A stretch of DNA of 45,893 nucleotides from Clostridiaceae bacterium. GTDB taxonomy: Bacteria; Bacillota; Clostridia; Saccharofermentanales; Saccharofermentanaceae. A model generated the notes under the pieces. That model was not told the DNA's origin. It saw only the letters and a program-made list of their open reading frames with translations, and ran no database searches. Shown piece after piece: positions 6,587 through 14,633 of this stretch; the stretch's first letter is position 1, and each line of letters opens with the position of its first letter. The translations under genes and the position numbers were made by a program. The stretch spans positions 1 to 45,893 of the forward strand of contig JAAYCT010000040.1 in NCBI GenBank assembly GCA_012729635.1. The letters are read 5' to 3'.

Positions 6587-7198
6587 ATGATGTTTGATTG
6601 GTGGGAATCATTATCCGTCATCCAGAAAATCTTCGGATATATGGCGATTCCGGGAACCGTTATCATGATTGTTCAGACCGTTCTGGTGATTATCGGTATC
6701 GGCGACGGTGATGCGGACATGGATGCGGACATTGCGGACGGGGATGTTTCGGACGTTTCGGAAGGGCCGGACGGATTAGCGTTAGTCAGCATTCGCGGTG
6801 TCGTTGCATTCTTTGCCGTCGGCGGTTGGACCGGGATTTTGCTTGACGGAATGGGTTTGCACGTCGCGTTGACCATTCTTATTTCCGTCGTTGCCGGAGC
6901 GCTGGCGCTTCTGGCGGTCGGCTACATTCTCAGCGCCACGAGAAAGCTTCAGGATCGAGGGAACATTCAACTGGCAAATGCGGTCGGCAAGACCGCAAAG
7001 GTATACATTACCGTTCCCGAAAACGGGAAAAGCGGAAAGGTGAATCTGACGGTTCAGGGCCGCTTCTCCGAGTTCGATGCCGTTACCCATTCCGGGAAAA
7101 GGCTGGTACCGGGACAAAGCGTGCTCGTGACCGGTCTTGAGGGTGAAAACACACTCGTCGTTTCTTTGCCGGAAGACGAACCGGAAAAACAGTCGTAA
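6587..7198 (+). CDS. NfeD-like membrane protein, flotillin partner
   Basis: Membrane protein of 203 residues with three hydrophobic stretches (about 15-38, 65-90, 92-112) and a C-terminal domain of about 70 residues that looks like the OB-fold of the NfeD family (GKTAKVYITVPENGKSGKV and later GQSVLVTGLEGE). The loop after the first helix is strongly acidic (repeated DADMDADIADGD). NfeD proteins of this kind are typically encoded beside a flotillin, as in the Bacillus YuaF-FloT pair, and this one is 32 bases before such a gene. Two adjacent ATGs (6587 and 6590) could start it; AAAGGAG fits both. Role inferred: organising membrane microdomains with the flotillin. Confidence 0.8.
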   Translation: MMFDWWESLSVIQKIFGYMAIPGTVIMIVQTVLVIIGIGDGDADMDADIADGDVSDVSEGPDGLALVSIRGVVAFFAVGGWTGILLDGMGLHVALTILISVVAGALALLAVGYILSATRKLQDRGNIQLANAVGKTAKVYITVPENGKSGKVNLTVQGRFSEFDAVTHSGKRLVPGQSVLVTGLEGENTLVVSLPEDEPEKQS

Positions 7199-7230
7199 AC
7201 AAACAAGAATAGGAAGAGGAGGATTTATTT

Positions 7231-8673
7231 ATGCCCGGTGCAGGAACAATTCTGATTATTGTCATAGTTTTGGTTCTTATGTCCACGATCATGGTGGTGC
7301 TTTCCCGTTATCGCAAGTGTCCGTCGGACAAAATCATGGTCATTTACGGTAAAGTCGGGAGCAACGTTGACGGAACGAATCGGTCCGCACGCTGTATTCA
7401 CGGAGGAGCGGCGTTCATTTGGCCCGTTTTTCAGGCCTATCAATACATGGATCTGACGCCGATTTCCATCAGCGTCGATCTGACCAACGCTCTTTCGAGA
7501 CAAAATATCCGTATTGATGTCCCGTCCCGTTTTACCGTCGGTATCTCGACGGAGGAGGGGATTATGCAGAACGCTGCGGAGCGACTTCTCGGATTACCGC
7601 TCAATGCGATCCAGGATTTGGCGAAGGACATTATTTTCGGTCAGCTTCGTTTAATTATCGCGACGATGGACATCGAGGAAATTAACACCAACCGGGACAA
7701 GTTCCTGGAGGCGGTTTCCGAAAACGTTGAGACCGAGCTAAAAAAGATCGGCTTGCGCCTGATCAACGTCAACGTTACCGACATCAGTGACGAGTCCGGC
7801 TACATCATCGCTCTCGGTAAGGAAGCGGCCGCCATCGCAATCAACGACGCGAAGAAGTCGGTTGCGGAAGCGGATCGGGCCGGTGCGATCGGTGAAGCGA
7901 ACGCCAACATGGATCAAAGAATCAAGGTGTCCATGGCGAACTCTCAAGCGGTAAAGGGTGAAAACGAAGCGAAGGCCAATATCGCGGCTTCGGATGCAAT
8001 CCGTCGTGAACTGGAAGCCGAAGCGATGCGTAAAGCGGTTTCCGCCGAGAAGATTCAAGCGGCAAAGGCTGCACAGGATGCGTATTCCGCAGAACAATCC
8101 GCAGAGCTTGCCCGTGCACAGCGTGAAAAGGCAACTTTGGAAGCCGATATTGTTGTTAAGGCCGAAATCGATAAGCGGCAATTGGAAATTGCCGCCGAAG
8201 CCGAGGCAGAGCAGTCGCGTCGCAGAGCCCGAGGAGAAGCGGACGCGATTTTCTCCAAAATGGAAGCCGAGGCCCGAGGCCTTGAGGAAATTCTGACCAA
8301 ACAGGCGATCGGTTTCGCGAAGGTTGTCGAGGCCGCCGGCGGAAATCCCTCCGACGCAATCCGTCTGATCATTGCCGACAAGCTCGAAGATATCGTGCGC
8401 GTCCAGGTCGAAGCGATTAAGAACCTGAAGATCGATAAGATCACGGTTTGGGACAGCAACGGCGGAACGGCAAAGGACGGGAAGACCGCAACCGCGAATT
8501 TCCTTTCCGGTATCATGAAGAGCATTCCTCCGATGAATGAGATGTTTGACATGGCCGGCATGGAGCTTCCCGACTATCTCGGGAAAAACAAAGCCGTATT
8601 CGTCAAGCCCGACGAAGTCGAAGTGCCGGAAACGATTCCGGCTTCCGGGGAACCGACCGGCGAAAAAGAGTAA
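7231..8673 (+). CDS. Flotillin / SPFH-domain membrane protein
   Basis: Flotillin-like scaffold of 480 residues. Residues 5-25 form a single N-terminal membrane segment; the SPFH (band 7) domain follows to about 190. Then comes a long heptad-rich, Ala/Glu/Lys-rich helical region (about 195-370) with many EA and AE steps, typical of flotillin coiled coils, and a C-terminal tail ending in acidic and proline residues. Known role in Firmicutes: forms membrane foci that gather signalling and secretion proteins. GAGGAGGATTTATTT precedes the ATG. It is the third gene after the DUF1836 regulator and directly follows its NfeD partner. A GC-rich hairpin at 8701 ends the unit. Confidence 0.9.
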   Translation: MPGAGTILIIVIVLVLMSTIMVVLSRYRKCPSDKIMVIYGKVGSNVDGTNRSARCIHGGAAFIWPVFQAYQYMDLTPISISVDLTNALSRQNIRIDVPSRFTVGISTEEGIMQNAAERLLGLPLNAIQDLAKDIIFGQLRLIIATMDIEEINTNRDKFLEAVSENVETELKKIGLRLINVNVTDISDESGYIIALGKEAAAIAINDAKKSVAEADRAGAIGEANANMDQRIKVSMANSQAVKGENEAKANIAASDAIRRELEAEAMRKAVSAEKIQAAKAAQDAYSAEQSAELARAQREKATLEADIVVKAEIDKRQLEIAAEAEAEQSRRRARGEADAIFSKMEAEARGLEEILTKQAIGFAKVVEAAGGNPSDAIRLIIADKLEDIVRVQVEAIKNLKIDKITVWDSNGGTAKDGKTATANFLSGIMKSIPPMNEMFDMAGMELPDYLGKNKAVFVKPDEVEVPETIPASGEPTGEKE

Positions 8674-8816: not shown

Positions 8817-11015
8817 TCAAGAAGCCCTTTCCGCGACATAAATTCCGACACGGCTTTGAAGTATGGCGGCGGTTTCTTCAGCGGTTTTTTCACCTACAAT
8901 GAAAGGGATCATTTCCTCATCGAAAATAATTTGAAGATACAGATCCGGAATATAGAAACCCTTTGCGGAATCAATGATTTGTTTGAATCCTGCTTCCCAA
9001 CTCTGATCGGTTGGGAACGGGCGGAGATAATCGGATTCATTGATTCCACCACGAGTGATTATCCCGGAATCCGTTTCTTGGGATCGTTGAGCCATAGTAC
9101 GAATTTGAGTATTCATTGCCGATCGGCTCACGGGAATGTCATCATTTGCAAATGCCGTGCTCAGGAATTGAACAGTGTCGCTCATCAAAAACTCAATAAA
9201 CTTATCGGCGCCATCGGGAAATATTGAATTTTCATATACGGCATACCCCATTGTCGCGGATACGATAGGCGGTTCCGGCCGACCTCGCGGATAACCCATA
9301 GCGGTGAAGTCGACGGCGCTCAGACGCGCACTGGTAATATAATCGACAAAGTTGTTTAAGGTTACAAATCGGAGCAGTTGTGACGGATTTGATTCATTGT
9401 TTTCGGGTTCAAATGTATTGAGTAAAGTCAAAAAATCCGGTGAATCCAAAGATGCCTTTCCGGCGGCGCGGTCGACAAAATATATCCGTGCCATCTCTGA
9501 AAAGCTATGGGAGTATTGATTACCTATAAGGGAAACATGAATCAAATCGGCATATTCCATAAGTCCGTCCAACGAGAAATCCTCAATCGCTTGAAAATGC
9601 TCGTTTTCGATCAAAAAACAGGAAACGTTGAAGAAAGGAGTCAGGTAGTATTGAGCCCCGTTCGCTTCGGGCGCCTTGACCGCGTTCAATAAATACTTCT
9701 TGGAGTCATTTCCTGTATACTGGTCAATTACCGGAGAAATATCTGCCAAAACATTTTTTTCGGCAAGCACTTCTAACTCGCCAATCGGTAAACAGAACAA
9801 ATCAGGCGGGTGATCTCCCAGCACATCAAGGATCATCTCTTTCCGGGATGACAGAAGCGAATCTCCGTCAATGACGTTCGTGTAACGATCATAATAGACG
9901 ACTTCGATACGGTAATCTGAATATGTCTGGTTAAAAAAGACTGCCAATGCCTCCATATCATAAGCAGAATCGTCAAATGCTGCCGCCAGACGAAGAATTT
10001 TGACTTGAGCATTTGGCTCCGTAAGAGATATGCGGAGCAGGCCGGATTCGTTGTCTGCAAATGAGTATGCACCGAGAAGTATAAATTCGCGCGAAGAAAG
10101 GACGCACATTCCTGTGTGTATGTCGAGATCCAGTCTTTGTTTTGATGTGGTTACCAGCGTAGTCAGTGTTGCGTTCTGTACGTTATACTCACTAATCTTG
10201 TCGTATGAGAGTAAAAACAGGCATTCATCGGGGCCTCCTCCCGAAATGATTCGTTCCGGAAGAAAACCGTCTTCGGGTAGAAACCGGAAAACCGTCTGTT
10301 GCTTCAAATCGTTAATCGAGAATTCATACAACGAACGTCCGCCATCTGAGTCTAATTTTAGTGCCATTATTTTCTGATCGGAAACACATGCAAAATCCAG
10401 AACTCCGGAGTTGTCGGCAGGTACTCTTTTTGTGTTGCCGCTTTCCGTGTCAAGCGTGAGAATAGAGTCATCAAGAAAGATAAGCACATTGGAGGTCATG
10501 TCACTTTCCACATCGATAACCGTTCGATCTGCCGCATCATCAAGCGTTCCGGAAAGTCTCAGTGTGCCGTCCGAAGCGATGATGTAGAAGTTCACGAGGG
10601 TCTGAAAGGATTCTTGGCTAAACATTGACGTCAAAAGACAAAGGCTGTTATTCGAGCATTGCGTTGCCGCGAGCGGTTCGCCTTTGATGTATTCCGGAAT
10701 GACAGTAGAAAAACGACCATCCAAGTCGATTGATGAAAGGTAAACGTTATCCTGAGCACTCCAGATAAGACGTATAATATCAGCATCAGAAAAAGCAGAA
10801 AGATATATGGCATTAAATGTTGAGCCAACGCGGGTGCCTTGCGTCTCCTCGACGTTCGCGATGAGCGTGTTGACCGTGGTAAGCATTTCAGTCGATGCAA
10901 ATAAGTCGCTATCGATGATCGTTCCTTCTGTCGGTTTCGAACAGGAGGGAATAGAGGAGATTACCAGCATTCCAACCAAAAGGAAGAGGATCAAATTACC
11001 CTTTCGATGTTTCAC
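8817..11015 (-). CDS. Large lipoprotein with C-terminal solute-binding-like domain
   Basis: Surface lipoprotein of 732 residues, last gene of an ABC transporter block. Residues 1-24 form a lipoprotein signal ending in SIPSC (Cys25). Residues about 50-350 consist of repeated short strand-like blocks (YLSSIDLDGRF, NFYIIASDGTLRLSG, ILTLDTESGNTKR) suggesting a beta-propeller. From about 360 the sequence resembles family 1 extracellular solute-binding proteins (EALAVFFNQTYSDYRIEVVY, PDLFCLPIGELEVLAEKN, GADKFIEFLMSD). The GTG start at 11015 has AAGGAG nine bases upstream and lies 20 bases inside the ATPase gene, so translation is coupled. Importer-type binding domains are unusual beside FtsX-type permeases. 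Specific function unknown. Confidence 0.75.
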   Translation of the reverse strand: MKHRKGNLILFLLVGMLVISSIPSCSKPTEGTIIDSDLFASTEMLTTVNTLIANVEETQGTRVGSTFNAIYLSAFSDADIIRLIWSAQDNVYLSSIDLDGRFSTVIPEYIKGEPLAATQCSNNSLCLLTSMFSQESFQTLVNFYIIASDGTLRLSGTLDDAADRTVIDVESDMTSNVLIFLDDSILTLDTESGNTKRVPADNSGVLDFACVSDQKIMALKLDSDGGRSLYEFSINDLKQQTVFRFLPEDGFLPERIISGGGPDECLFLLSYDKISEYNVQNATLTTLVTTSKQRLDLDIHTGMCVLSSREFILLGAYSFADNESGLLRISLTEPNAQVKILRLAAAFDDSAYDMEALAVFFNQTYSDYRIEVVYYDRYTNVIDGDSLLSSRKEMILDVLGDHPPDLFCLPIGELEVLAEKNVLADISPVIDQYTGNDSKKYLLNAVKAPEANGAQYYLTPFFNVSCFLIENEHFQAIEDFSLDGLMEYADLIHVSLIGNQYSHSFSEMARIYFVDRAAGKASLDSPDFLTLLNTFEPENNESNPSQLLRFVTLNNFVDYITSARLSAVDFTAMGYPRGRPEPPIVSATMGYAVYENSIFPDGADKFIEFLMSDTVQFLSTAFANDDIPVSRSAMNTQIRTMAQRSQETDSGIITRGGINESDYLRPFPTDQSWEAGFKQIIDSAKGFYIPDLYLQIIFDEEMIPFIVGEKTAEETAAILQSRVGIYVAERAS

Positions 11016-11700
11016 GTGATATTGCTCCTTCGGAAATGACTCCGTCCTCGATAAACAATTGACGATCCGCCAGTTCTGCGACTTGCGGGTCATGTGTCAC
11101 GACGACGACGGTTTTGCCTTCGTCATGTATTTTTTTAAGAAGTGACAGAGTTTCTTGCTTTGTTTTTCGATCCAACGCGCCGGTTGGCTCGTCTGCCAAA
11201 ATCAACTCGGGATCGTTGATCAGAGCCCTTGCGATAGCGACGCGTTGTTTTTGCCCTCCGGACATTTGGCTGACTTTGCGTTTTATCAGCTCCGAAATTC
11301 CAAGTTTTTCACAGATGGATCGGATACGCTCCCGTCTTTTTTTTCGAGGGACTTGGGAAAAAAAGAGCGGAAGTTCAATATTCTCATACGCCGTTCGATA
11401 GGGGATCAATGCAAAATCCTGCAGAACAAATCCGATTTTCTCGTTACGAAGTTTCGCTCTTTTCGAATCACTCATTTTGGAAGGAATCGGTTTTCCGAAG
11501 TAAATGCTACCGTCAGTCGGTTGGTCCAGAAACCCCATGATATGAAGAAGTGTTGACTTCCCGGAACCGGATACCCCCGTGATCGCGATCATTTCTCCTT
11601 TTTGTAGTTTGAGGTCCACTCCCCGAAGAGCCTCGACGTGCAGTTCCCTGCGGGGATGATATGTTTTGAGAATATTTTTTAATTCATAATACGCTGCCAT
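10996..11700 (-). CDS. ABC transporter ATPase, MacB/LolD type
   Basis: Nucleotide-binding subunit, 234 residues, of the MacB/LolD/FtsE class that powers FtsX-type permeases rather than importers. Motifs: Walker A GVSGSGKST near residue 42, Q-loop in FVLQDFALIP, signature MSGGQKQRVAIARAL, Walker B LILADEPTGALD, switch histidine VVTHDP. The ATG at 11700 was chosen, with AAAGGA nine bases before it; a TTG nine bases upstream is less likely. It lies five bases after the permease stop at 11706 and its end overlaps the lipoprotein start by 20 bases. From its neighbours it couples ATP hydrolysis to movement of the two FtsX-like subunits. Confidence 0.9.
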   Translation of the reverse strand: MAAYYELKNILKTYHPRRELHVEALRGVDLKLQKGEMIAITGVSGSGKSTLLHIMGFLDQPTDGSIYFGKPIPSKMSDSKRAKLRNEKIGFVLQDFALIPYRTAYENIELPLFFSQVPRKKRRERIRSICEKLGISELIKRKVSQMSGGQKQRVAIARALINDPELILADEPTGALDRKTKQETLSLLKKIHDEGKTVVVVTHDPQVAELADRQLFIEDGVISEGAISRETSKG

Positions 11701-11705
11701 GTGAA

Positions 11706-12893
11706 TCAATCCTTTCTGTATACATCGAGCGGCGATTGGCGAAGAGCGGATATATAGAACGGAAACGTTCCGGAAACGAGGAGAAAGATAAGAAGTCCGA
11801 AAGATATGAAAATATCGCTCAAGCTGATGTAGCTTGATAAAGTATCTCTGAAACCAAATCCGGATTGTAAAACAAAATGGAACACTCCGGAACTATAACC
11901 GAAAAGAAAAGCAATCAGCTTGGGGATCATGATCAGAACTAAACAGGATTTCCAGGGTAGTCCGGACAGATGATAGACCGCCAATTCTTTTCGCCCCATA
12001 ATCACTGAAAGATATGTTCCGGCAAGGAGAAAAGAGAAAGCCAGTAAGAACAAGGAAAGACCGGATATAACCAACTCCCGGAGTTGATCGTCATGATTCT
12101 TCCAATATTGAGAGACCATATCCTGCCCGATATGAACGTAATCTTTCGATTGAACCACATCGGAAATATTCTTTTTCAGTTGGAGGAGGTCTTCGTCGGA
12201 TTCCGGAGTGATAATTAGGTACTGGTTATAGTCTCCTTGTAAGGTCTTGCCGGAGATATCCAACAATCCGTATGCCCATCCCTTATCCGGTTGCACATCA
12301 AATAAATGACCGACATCCATATTGGGCATGCTTCTGTTGAAGGACAGGGTTCTGTCGTCTTGGAAAAAGCCGGAAACGGTTACCCGCACCGTCGGGTAAT
12401 CATCGGCGAAAAAATTATCGTAATTATAAAAAAACATCTCTATGGTGTCTCCGACGTCCAAATACTGCCGGTAATGAGGAGGAAGAAGCACATGATTGGG
12501 CTCTTCGGGCGAGGGATATTTCCCTTCGGACAAGGGGTATCGGACATTGTTGAGCTCGGGTGAATCCGAAATAATTAACCGAAACCATATTCCACCCTCG
12601 ATGGCTTCAAGCGTATTACAACTGATTGTGCCGACGTTCGCGACACCGGGAACCTTTCTGATTTCCGAAACTTCTGAAGGCATAGCGGATGTCGAGTCAG
12701 TCATCCGATAGCAATAAAACAAATCGTTTTCCAAACCGGCCTTTTGAAAAATGCGTATCGAGCGTGTGAAAGTATCGATCTCACGAGTGATGCCCAAAAC
12801 CGAGCCGGTGATAAAAAAGACAAAAACAATCAGAAGAATCACTTCAACCCAGTTCTTTCGGATTTGACGAAATATAAGTGTACTGTTGATCAT
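11706..12893 (-). CDS. FtsX/MacB-like ABC permease, second copy
   Basis: Membrane subunit of 395 residues with the topology of FtsX/MacB permeases: one transmembrane segment at about 15-40, a large extracellular domain of some 240 residues and three C-terminal segments (about 275-300, 325-345, 360-385). The region GRKELAVYHLSGLPWKS is the usual cytoplasmic loop between the second and third segments. The ATG at 12893 shares its A with the stop of the other permease gene (TGATG), with GGAGG just upstream, so the two are coupled. The extracellular domain is not the same as that of the partner permease. MacB-like transporters act on periplasmic or surface substrates; the substrate here is unknown. 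Confidence 0.8.
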   Translation of the reverse strand: MINSTLIFRQIRKNWVEVILLIVFVFFITGSVLGITREIDTFTRSIRIFQKAGLENDLFYCYRMTDSTSAMPSEVSEIRKVPGVANVGTISCNTLEAIEGGIWFRLIISDSPELNNVRYPLSEGKYPSPEEPNHVLLPPHYRQYLDVGDTIEMFFYNYDNFFADDYPTVRVTVSGFFQDDRTLSFNRSMPNMDVGHLFDVQPDKGWAYGLLDISGKTLQGDYNQYLIITPESDEDLLQLKKNISDVVQSKDYVHIGQDMVSQYWKNHDDQLRELVISGLSLFLLAFSFLLAGTYLSVIMGRKELAVYHLSGLPWKSCLVLIMIPKLIAFLFGYSSGVFHFVLQSGFGFRDTLSSYISLSDIFISFGLLIFLLVSGTFPFYISALRQSPLDVYRKD

Positions 12894-14065
12894 CAAATTT
12901 CCTCCGTCGCAATTATATCGGCGGATATCCGTCGAATGACAACCCAAAAACCCGCGCATACGGACAATGTTGCGAGATATATCCAAGAACTCGTAATGAT
13001 ATCTTGGGCAGTCAGCGTTTCCAGCCATCGATCAACAGGGGGAATCGATTTCAGAACAAAGAGAAGAGCGAGCCCAAGAGAAAAGGAGGATACTAAGGAA
13101 ACAAGATAAAGGGATACGGATTGCTTAATGGAATATGCTTGCGTCGCACCTACGATTCGAGCGATTCGAAATTCCGGCTGTCTTAAACGAACAAGGTAGG
13201 AAAAAACAGAGAAAATACCGACCGTGCAGAGAAATAATAAAAGAGCATTTTCGGACATTTTATGCTTATAGTTATCATCTACCCATTGTAACTTGCTGCG
13301 TTGATACGGTTTAACTATGTCTTGAACCGATAGATGATCGGCGGCGGTATCATAAAACAACCTCTCTTCTGTAGGTTCCAGCGTCTTATCAAATTGAATA
13401 ATCAACGTGTCATAAATCGGGGACACATCAAAAAAATGTGCATAAGCAACCACAGCGCCGGAATGGAAAACGTCTTCCGATTGCAGCTCGTTATACATTC
13501 CGATGATTCCGATCGGTTGATAAGGAGAAGAGTGGTTAATGGTTATATTCCCGATGATTTCAGTCGTTGGGTGGATATTAATGTCCGTAGTTTCATCATC
13601 TATTTGTTGTAGGATTATGTTCGTAAGATCTAAATCAAACGGATGCGAAAGGATGATCTCAAGTTCCGGGAAAGAAAAGTTCGCGGAGCCATATTCAAGC
13701 AATAAATTCTTCTCCCGAATTGGTAAATCCGGCCAGAAAGCCGCGACGCGGCCATTTATAGATTGGCCGGTTCTAAGACCAAAATCAGCGACGGAAGAAA
13801 CAACGATATAATCGGGAGAGAGATCATTTTCTGCAAGTGCTTGTGCGAAAGAATCAAAGCTTTTTTTATCGCATTCGTTTACACGAAATGTATAGCGCGA
13901 GAGGGAATATTCGGATTCTCGATCAATACTTCGTTTGAACTCGCTTTCCCGGTATTGAAGAAGTACGGAGGTAATAAAAAGCCCGGCTCCGGCAAGACAG
14001 AAGACCAAAAAAGTAATCCAGTATTGCTTGATAAATGAAAGGGTCGATTTAAAAGAATCAATCAT
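12893..14065 (-). CDS. FtsX/MacB-like ABC permease, first copy
   Basis: Membrane subunit of 390 residues, first of two permeases. One N-terminal membrane segment (about 12-36), an extracellular domain of some 220 residues and three C-terminal segments. The loop RLRQPEFRIARIVGATQAYS resembles the conserved FtsX loop that contacts the ATPase. GGAG lies seven bases before the ATG. It overlaps the next gene by one base (TGATG). With the second permease it probably forms a heterodimer. The gap to the secreted-protein gene upstream (14066-14234) contains no clear terminator, so both may be on one transcript; a TTGACA there lacks a well-placed -10. Confidence 0.78.
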   Translation of the reverse strand: MIDSFKSTLSFIKQYWITFLVFCLAGAGLFITSVLLQYRESEFKRSIDRESEYSLSRYTFRVNECDKKSFDSFAQALAENDLSPDYIVVSSVADFGLRTGQSINGRVAAFWPDLPIREKNLLLEYGSANFSFPELEIILSHPFDLDLTNIILQQIDDETTDINIHPTTEIIGNITINHSSPYQPIGIIGMYNELQSEDVFHSGAVVAYAHFFDVSPIYDTLIIQFDKTLEPTEERLFYDTAADHLSVQDIVKPYQRSKLQWVDDNYKHKMSENALLLFLCTVGIFSVFSYLVRLRQPEFRIARIVGATQAYSIKQSVSLYLVSLVSSFSLGLALLFVLKSIPPVDRWLETLTAQDIITSSWIYLATLSVCAGFWVVIRRISADIIATEEI

Positions 14066-14234
14066 ATCGGACTCCGTTTCAATATGGGATTGTGAGTGTA
14101 TGCGGACAATCCAATGTCAATTTAGTATAGCAAAAATCAATTTGGATTGATATTATGCACAACAATGCCGCTCACAATGAACCATGAACGGCACCGTTAT
14201 TGTTGCTTTTGATGATTTTGTGACGATCTATTCG

Positions 14235-14633
14235 TCATTCGTAATCGTTATTTGTAACGGTATAGGACCTGGTTATATTGCCTGTAAGTGTTCCGCTGAT
14301 CCCCATAATCCGAAATCCGTCATTGGCCGTGGCAAAGTGATAAGAGGTGTTTCCCGATGCTGTCAATTCGACTTTCTGATCGGGCCACCATAGCATGCTA
14401 CAAGTATAATAGTAAGGCTCGGGATTATTCTTTTTCTCGCCCTTTTCTACCTTGAGGGTGATTAATCTCTTTTTAACGAGACCGTTAACGTCGTAAAGGT
14501 TTGTATACGCTGACGATGATGTATTTTGGACTTTAACTTTGACATTCTTTGTATACTCTATTGCGAGTACCGATACGGCAGAGACCGACAGAATGACGCT
14601 GATTCCGACAAGTAAGGATAATAACTTTTTCAT
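14235..14633 (-). CDS. Small secreted protein of unknown function
   Basis: Protein of 132 residues with a clear signal peptide: MKKLLSLLVGISVILSVSA, then VSVLA and a likely cleavage before IEY. The mature part of about 108 residues is rich in Thr, Asn, Tyr and Lys and predicted to be mostly strands, without a family I recognise. One Cys and two adjacent Trp (SMLWWPDQKV) are present. GAGAGGT precedes the ATG. It is the first gene of a same-strand block with two FtsX-like permeases, an ATPase and a lipoprotein, and could be a secreted effector, bacteriocin-like protein or the sensed partner of that transporter. Its promoter contains a homopolymer run (see 14677). Confidence 0.7.
   Translation of the reverse strand: MKKLLSLLVGISVILSVSAVSVLAIEYTKNVKVKVQNTSSSAYTNLYDVNGLVKKRLITLKVEKGEKKNNPEPYYYTCSMLWWPDQKVELTASGNTSYHFATANDGFRIMGISGTLTGNITRSYTVTNNDYE

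What the first reader, a model, noticed from the sequence alone, without database searches (positions are those of the whole stretch)
8817..14633. FtsX-type ABC system with a propeller plus solute-binding lipoprotein and a small secreted protein
Two unlike FtsX/MacB permeases and a MacB-type ATPase are tightly coupled (one-base and 20-base overlaps) to a 732-residue lipoprotein whose N-terminal half looks like a beta-propeller and C-terminal half like an importer binding protein. A signal-peptide protein of unknown family heads the block. Solute-binding domains normally serve importers of another type, so this mix may be a mechanotransmission or peptide-sensing system, or a toxin and self-protection unit.
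Basis: partly seen in the sequence, partly recalled or inferred. Interest (0 to 1): 0.75.

Follow-up and report, generated by a model that had tools for sequence, protein, structure and literature searches.

The report
Secreted toxin-like protein with ABC self-protection
In a little-studied family of anaerobic clostridia, a fast-changing secreted protein is encoded next to a membrane pump and a surface receptor that very likely shield the producer from it, which looks like a new layout of a bacteriocin and its immunity genes.

Summary
The five genes are real and as described: a Sec-type secreted protein (SEC, 132 aa), two 4-TM FtsX-type permeases (PA, PB), a MacB/LolD-type ATPase, and a 732-aa lipoprotein (LP) with a beta-propeller N-half and an SBP family 1 C-half. 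This is a recurrent cassette: four copies in this genome, 32 complete permease/ATPase units read in the bacterial family. Of these, 24 have an intact SEC, 3 a broken one, 5 none; small signal-peptide ORFs are 12 of 329 background ORFs. SEC is hypervariable: at one orthologous locus permeases and LP are 94-98% identical but mature SEC 51% (dN/dS about 1.0 against 0.09-0.16). Where SEC is broken or lost the transporter stays intact. Cassette LPs form their own clade. Some loci sit beside agr-type quorum-sensing genes. Best reading: a secreted bacteriocin-like toxin with a type VII ABC plus receptor-lipoprotein immunity unit, organised like lactococcin 972/streptococcin B. SEC, permeases and ATPase fail the Lcn972 family models, and the propeller-SBP lipoprotein is new to that layout.

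The parts
14235..14633 (-). SEC: small Sec-secreted protein (132 aa, ~108 aa mature), proposed bacteriocin-like toxin
   Evidence: signal peptide; no Pfam/NCBIfam family; a homologous or analogous gene heads the other cassettes
14159..14200 (-). 18-bp stem-loop in the SEC-PA gap; proposed attenuator or mRNA stabiliser that lets SEC be made in excess of the rest
   Evidence: region MFE -35.3 kcal/mol, z -2.7; strong stems also in the SEC-permease gaps of L033, L029, L080, L082; no run of T follows, so not a classic terminator
12893..14065 (-). PA: FtsX/MacB-type half permease (390 aa, 1 TM + ~235 aa extracellular + 3 TM)
   Evidence: Pfam FtsX 31.7 bits against cut-off 25.5; topology; paralogs
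11706..12893 (-). PB: second, dissimilar FtsX-type half permease (395 aa)
   Evidence: profile hits YtrF, MacB, LolF; topology; one-base overlap with PA
10996..11700 (-). ATP: MacB/LolD/FtsE-type ABC ATPase (234 aa), Walker A, signature and H-loop intact
8817..11015 (-). LP: 732-aa lipoprotein, beta-propeller N-half and SBP family 1 C-half; proposed toxin-binding surface receptor of the immunity pump
   Evidence: lipobox IPSC; propeller; SBP; cassette-specific clade

Best explanation
A bacteriocin-like operon. SEC is exported by the Sec pathway (inferred from its signal peptide), so it needs no dedicated exporter, and acts outside the cell on competing, probably closely related, bacteria. PA, PB and the ATPase form a heterodimeric type VII (FtsX/MacB/LolCDE-like) ABC complex that does mechanical work on the outer face of the membrane. 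The lipoprotein LP, anchored outside, binds SEC or the SEC-target complex, and the pump uses ATP to pull it off the membrane or the cell-wall precursor. Together they give self-immunity, functionally like NisI plus NisFEG or like the presumed immunity pair of lactococcin 972. Shown here: gene anatomy, recurrence, adjacency, hypervariability of SEC, retention of the transporter without SEC, and the dedicated LP clade. Inferred: secretion, toxicity, target, and the capture-and-expel step.
For: Adjacency: 24 of 32 permease/ATPase units in the family have an intact small signal-peptide gene directly upstream on the same strand, against 12 of 329 other ORFs. Conversely, a SEC-subfamily profile over 115 genomes found 9 matches; 8 are beside such a transporter and the ninth is a signal-peptide-only match on an unrelated lipoprotein. 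Hypervariability: L091 against L132, upstream gene 96%, permeases 95-98%, LP 94%, mature SEC 51%, with dN/dS about 1.0 against 0.09-0.16. Immunity-only loci: SEC truncated (L087), stopped (L077), frameshifted (L137) or gone (L078) with the transporter intact. Quorum sensing: AgrB, GHKL kinase and LytTR regulator directly upstream in L080, AgrB with similar genes in L082, GHKL+LytTR beside L085. CPBP/Rce1-like gene between two cassettes. Stem-loops after SEC in five cassettes. Precedent: lactococcin 972/streptococcin B operons are a Sec-secreted beta-sandwich bacteriocin followed by membrane and ATPase genes (PMC11796350, PMC4055356).
Against: No antibacterial activity or immunity is shown. SEC has no recognisable toxin domain and no convincing Pfam/NCBIfam match among 18 members. 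dN/dS near 1 also fits relaxed constraint or allelic replacement, and two other ortholog pairs have near-identical SEC. The genomes are mostly draft MAGs, so single-base breaks of SEC may be errors. The own genome has no AgrB. LP is absent in 8 of 32 units, so it is not essential to every version.
Confidence: 0.62

Rival explanations
1. Peptide-sensing relay: SEC is a secreted signal or ligand, LP is its receptor and the FtsX-type pair transmits binding mechanically (as FtsEX or BceAB do), with no killing.
For: Type VII ABC complexes are established mechanotransmitters (abstracts); LP is an SBP-type receptor; some cassettes lie beside two-component genes.
Against: The quorum-sensing neighbours carry their own AgrB/kinase set, so a second sensor is not needed. 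A signal should be conserved with its receptor, yet SEC diverges far faster than LP and the permeases. No kinase sits beside the window copy.
Confidence: 0.14
2. Export or release machine: the LolCDE-like pair extracts SEC (or another lipoprotein) from the membrane and hands it to LP, so the cassette is a secretion/release device for SEC.
For: The ATPases score nearly as well to LolD and MacB as to TIGR03608; the NCBI name for TIGR03608 is putative bacteriocin export.
Against: SEC has a signal peptide and no lipobox or membrane anchor, so Sec should suffice. The transporter persists where SEC is broken or lost. Streptococcin B is secreted without BlpAB or ComAB (PMC11796350).
Confidence: 0.1
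3. Resistance module against foreign antimicrobial peptides (BceAB/YtrEF-like) in which SEC is a secreted decoy or accessory factor rather than a toxin.
For: The PB profile's best solved relative is YtrF, whose operon responds to lipid II-cycle inhibitors (PMC12772383).
Against: SEC heads the operon and is separated by a stem-loop, as for a highly expressed product; its hypervariability and loss pattern fit a toxin better than a decoy. A decoy could also be hypervariable, so this is not excluded.
Confidence: 0.09

Closest known systems
Lactococcin 972 / streptococcin B operon (lcn972-orf2-orf3, scbABC)
   Same: small Sec-secreted protein first, then membrane protein(s) and a related ABC ATPase; quorum-sensing control of some copies; toxin-less loci with retained downstream genes occur in both
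   Different: SEC, permeases and ATPase do not pass the Lcn972 models PF09683/TIGR01653, TIGR01654/PF07242 and TIGR03608; two half permeases instead of one large membrane protein (from memory); adds a propeller-SBP lipoprotein
Nisin immunity NisI + NisFEG
   Same: producer-side surface lipoprotein plus ABC complex next to the antimicrobial gene
   Different: from general knowledge: NisFEG is not FtsX-type, NisI is not an SBP, and nisin is a modified lantibiotic with its own exporter (one search lists the literature)
LolCDE / MacB / FtsEX / BceAB / YtrEF type VII ABC systems
   Same: permease topology and ATPase class
   Different: none of these is known to me to pair with an SBP-fold lipoprotein or with a hypervariable secreted protein gene
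Carbohydrate SBPs (CbpC, YesO, Lmo0181) and the other propeller-SBP lipoproteins of the same bacteria
   Same: C-half fold family of LP; whole architecture shared with relatives
   Different: those relatives serve importers or stand alone; cassette LPs form a separate clade

Membership tests
Lactococcin 972 bacteriocin system | secreted protein matches PF09683/TIGR01653 | tested here: not met
   neither model listed at E<=1 for 18 SEC members
Lactococcin 972 bacteriocin system | membrane protein matches TIGR01654 / PF07242 | tested here: not met
   no match for window PA/PB in NCBIfam or Pfam; none for 22 PB members in Pfam
Lactococcin 972 bacteriocin system | ATPase passes the TIGR03608 cut-off | tested here: not met
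   222.5 bits against 254.85; 206-220 in nine relatives, though often the best or second-best model
Lactococcin 972 bacteriocin system | gene order secreted protein, membrane protein(s), ATPase | tested here: met
Lactococcin 972 bacteriocin system | beta-sandwich fold and lipid II binding of the secreted protein | not testable with these tools
Type VII ABC (FtsX/MacB superfamily) | half permease with 1 TM, large extracellular domain, 3 TM and FtsX C-terminal domain | tested here: met
   topology; PF02687 for PA and for 7 of 22 PB members; profile hits YtrF, MacB, LolF
SBP family 1 lipoprotein | lipobox and SBP_bac_1/8 domain | tested here: met
   lipobox; CbpC E=2e-14; SBP_bac_1 in 12 of 18 members, though window LP alone is 21 bits, below the 26-bit cut-off
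Bacteriocin operon (functional class) | secreted product inhibits relatives and neighbours confer immunity | not tested
   needs experiments

The most novel reading that the evidence does not exclude
A new family of hypervariable, Sec-secreted protein toxins in clostridia (likely Saccharofermentanaceae) whose immunity comes from a type VII ABC heterodimer fed by a propeller-SBP receptor lipoprotein: a pairing of an SBP with a mechanotransmission ABC complex, used to capture and expel a protein toxin.
Probability: 0.5. Interest if true: 0.75.

Novelty: new variant of a known kind. Interest (0 to 1): 0.62.

Why it matters
Immunity to Lcn972-type secreted bacteriocins has no experimental explanation (PMC11796350 states data are lacking). 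This cassette gives natural variants, including broken-toxin loci and hypervariable toxin alleles with nearly constant pumps, that make the immunity question directly testable. It would also be the first case known to me of an SBP-fold lipoprotein working with an FtsX-type pump.

Tried and rejected
Phage or plasmid origin: no PB match in 50,697 phage or 72,556 plasmid records and none in IMG/VR; no LP match in IMG/VR. Known antiphage defence: only ATPase-domain matches in PADLOC. Known solved relative of SEC: the best hits of the 18-member profile cover mainly the signal-peptide end and look like chance, and the 5-member profile hit nothing. pBL1 (lcn972) was not in the plasmid collection under AF242367, so no direct alignment with Lcn972 genes was made. 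Broader spread: full-length relatives (E<=1e-18) appeared in only four genomes outside the family among 391 class-level genomes; one of these (L126) keeps SEC-PA-PB-ATP without LP.

Full report
Observation. The five minus-strand genes exist as described. Order on the coding strand: SEC (14235-14633), PA (12893-14065), PB (11706-12893), ATPase (10996-11700), LP (8817-11015, GTG start behind AAGGAG). PA/PB overlap by one base and ATPase/LP by 20 bases. PA and PB each have one N-terminal TM, about 235 extracellular residues and three C-terminal TMs. PA passes Pfam FtsX. PB is recognised through its relatives, 7 of 22 alignment members hitting FtsX, and by its profile, which hits YtrF, MacB and LolF structures. 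The ATPase is closest to MacB, TIGR03608 and LolD models. LP carries a lipobox. Its N-half profile hits WD40, PQQ, NHL and TolB propellers (the best E-values are inflated by repeats), and its C-half is SBP family 1 (CbpC, E=2e-14).

Recurrence. The same five-gene order is found on contig 25 of the same genome, with an LP of 421 aa that has no propeller, and twice on contig 35, where one PB copy is split into two frames. Orthologous units lie in other genomes of the family. In the titled collection the best copy (L075) is a 'Clostridiaceae bacterium' MAG. The family is probably Saccharofermentanaceae, which is my inference and was not tested. Some units have PB before PA, some have ATPase and PB or LP swapped, and 8 of 32 lack LP. 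Full-length relatives outside the family are rare (4 of 391 class-level genomes), but one of them (L126) has SEC-PA-PB-ATPase.

Is the secreted gene part of the unit? In 32 units of the family with both permeases and the ATPase, 24 have an intact small signal-peptide gene directly upstream on the same strand, 3 have a broken one (L077 internal stop, L087 truncated, L137 frameshift) and 5 have none. Some of the 24 are near-identical orthologs (for example L095/L138 and L089/L131), so they are not all independent. In the rest of those loci 12 of 329 selected ORFs are small with a signal peptide. A SEC-subfamily profile over 115 genomes gave 9 matches; 8 are beside such a transporter and the ninth is a signal-peptide match on an unrelated lipoprotein. 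L151 is a divergent cassette reached through its SEC.

How SEC evolves. At one orthologous locus (L091 against L132) the upstream gene is 96% identical, permeases 95-98%, LP 94%, but mature SEC 51%, with conserved ends. dN/dS is about 1.0 for mature SEC against 0.09-0.16 for the neighbours. In the pair L080/L082 it is 0.57 against 0.05-0.18. This fits diversifying selection or allele replacement, as for many bacteriocins; relaxed constraint is not excluded. Two other pairs (L089/L131, L095/L138) have near-identical SEC, so the pattern is locus-specific.

The lipoprotein. Propeller-SBP lipoproteins of about 800 aa are abundant in this family of bacteria, often alone or beside carbohydrate-type permeases (the permease naming is by eye). 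The 24 cassette LPs form one clade apart from the 17 others (local support 0.995). LP distances track PA, PB and ATPase distances (Mantel r 0.71-0.78, 0 of 2000 permutations). LP is therefore a dedicated component that travels with the pump.

Regulation and extras. L080 carries AgrB, a GHKL kinase and a LytTR regulator directly upstream of SEC. L082 has AgrB plus two genes of matching size and start. L085 has GHKL and LytTR next to its unit. The own genome has no AgrB. A strong stem-loop lies between SEC and the permease gene in all five cassettes folded, suggesting that SEC is made in excess.

Mechanism and comparison. Lcn972-type operons pair a Sec-secreted beta-sandwich bacteriocin with a membrane protein and an ATPase presumed to give immunity, without experimental proof. 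The present cassette has the same logic but fails the Lcn972 models for SEC, membrane protein and ATPase, so it is not filed as a member. I propose that SEC kills or inhibits relatives and that LP plus the type VII ABC pair captures and expels SEC at the producer's surface. Toxicity, target and immunity are inferred. Rivals are a sensing relay, a release machine for SEC, and a general peptide-resistance pump with a decoy.

Limits. Genomes are mostly draft MAGs, so single-base breaks of SEC could be errors; the truncation in L087 and the absence in L078 are less easily explained that way. The signal-peptide test was a simple in-house rule.

Noticed in passing
L134:7454-9360, L135:7680-9273, L092:3555-4247: Three cassettes are preceded by an XRE-type regulator (by eye) with a C-terminal TM and, in two of them, a ~205-aa secreted protein (shortened to 78 aa in L092); possibly another regulatory or toxin component.
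   Followed up: partly
L029:9559-10320: A CPBP/Rce1-like (PF02517) membrane protein gene lies between the two tandem cassettes on contig 35; this family includes bacteriocin self-immunity proteins.
   Followed up: partly
L029:13361-14583: PB of one contig-35 cassette is split into two overlapping frames; real pseudogene or assembly error.
   Followed up: no
L004:194-6179: Downstream of the contig-25 cassette: a LytTR-like regulator, MacB-type ATPase, 821-aa double FtsX permease and a signal-peptide M13 peptidase (M13 by Pfam, the rest by eye).
   Followed up: partly
window 6587-8673: NfeD-like and flotillin-like genes (by eye) on the + strand, convergent with LP.
   Followed up: no
L078:3940-4600: The region where SEC would lie is filled by several imperfect repeats (units near GAGTAGG...CCTACTCAATC).
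   Followed up: no
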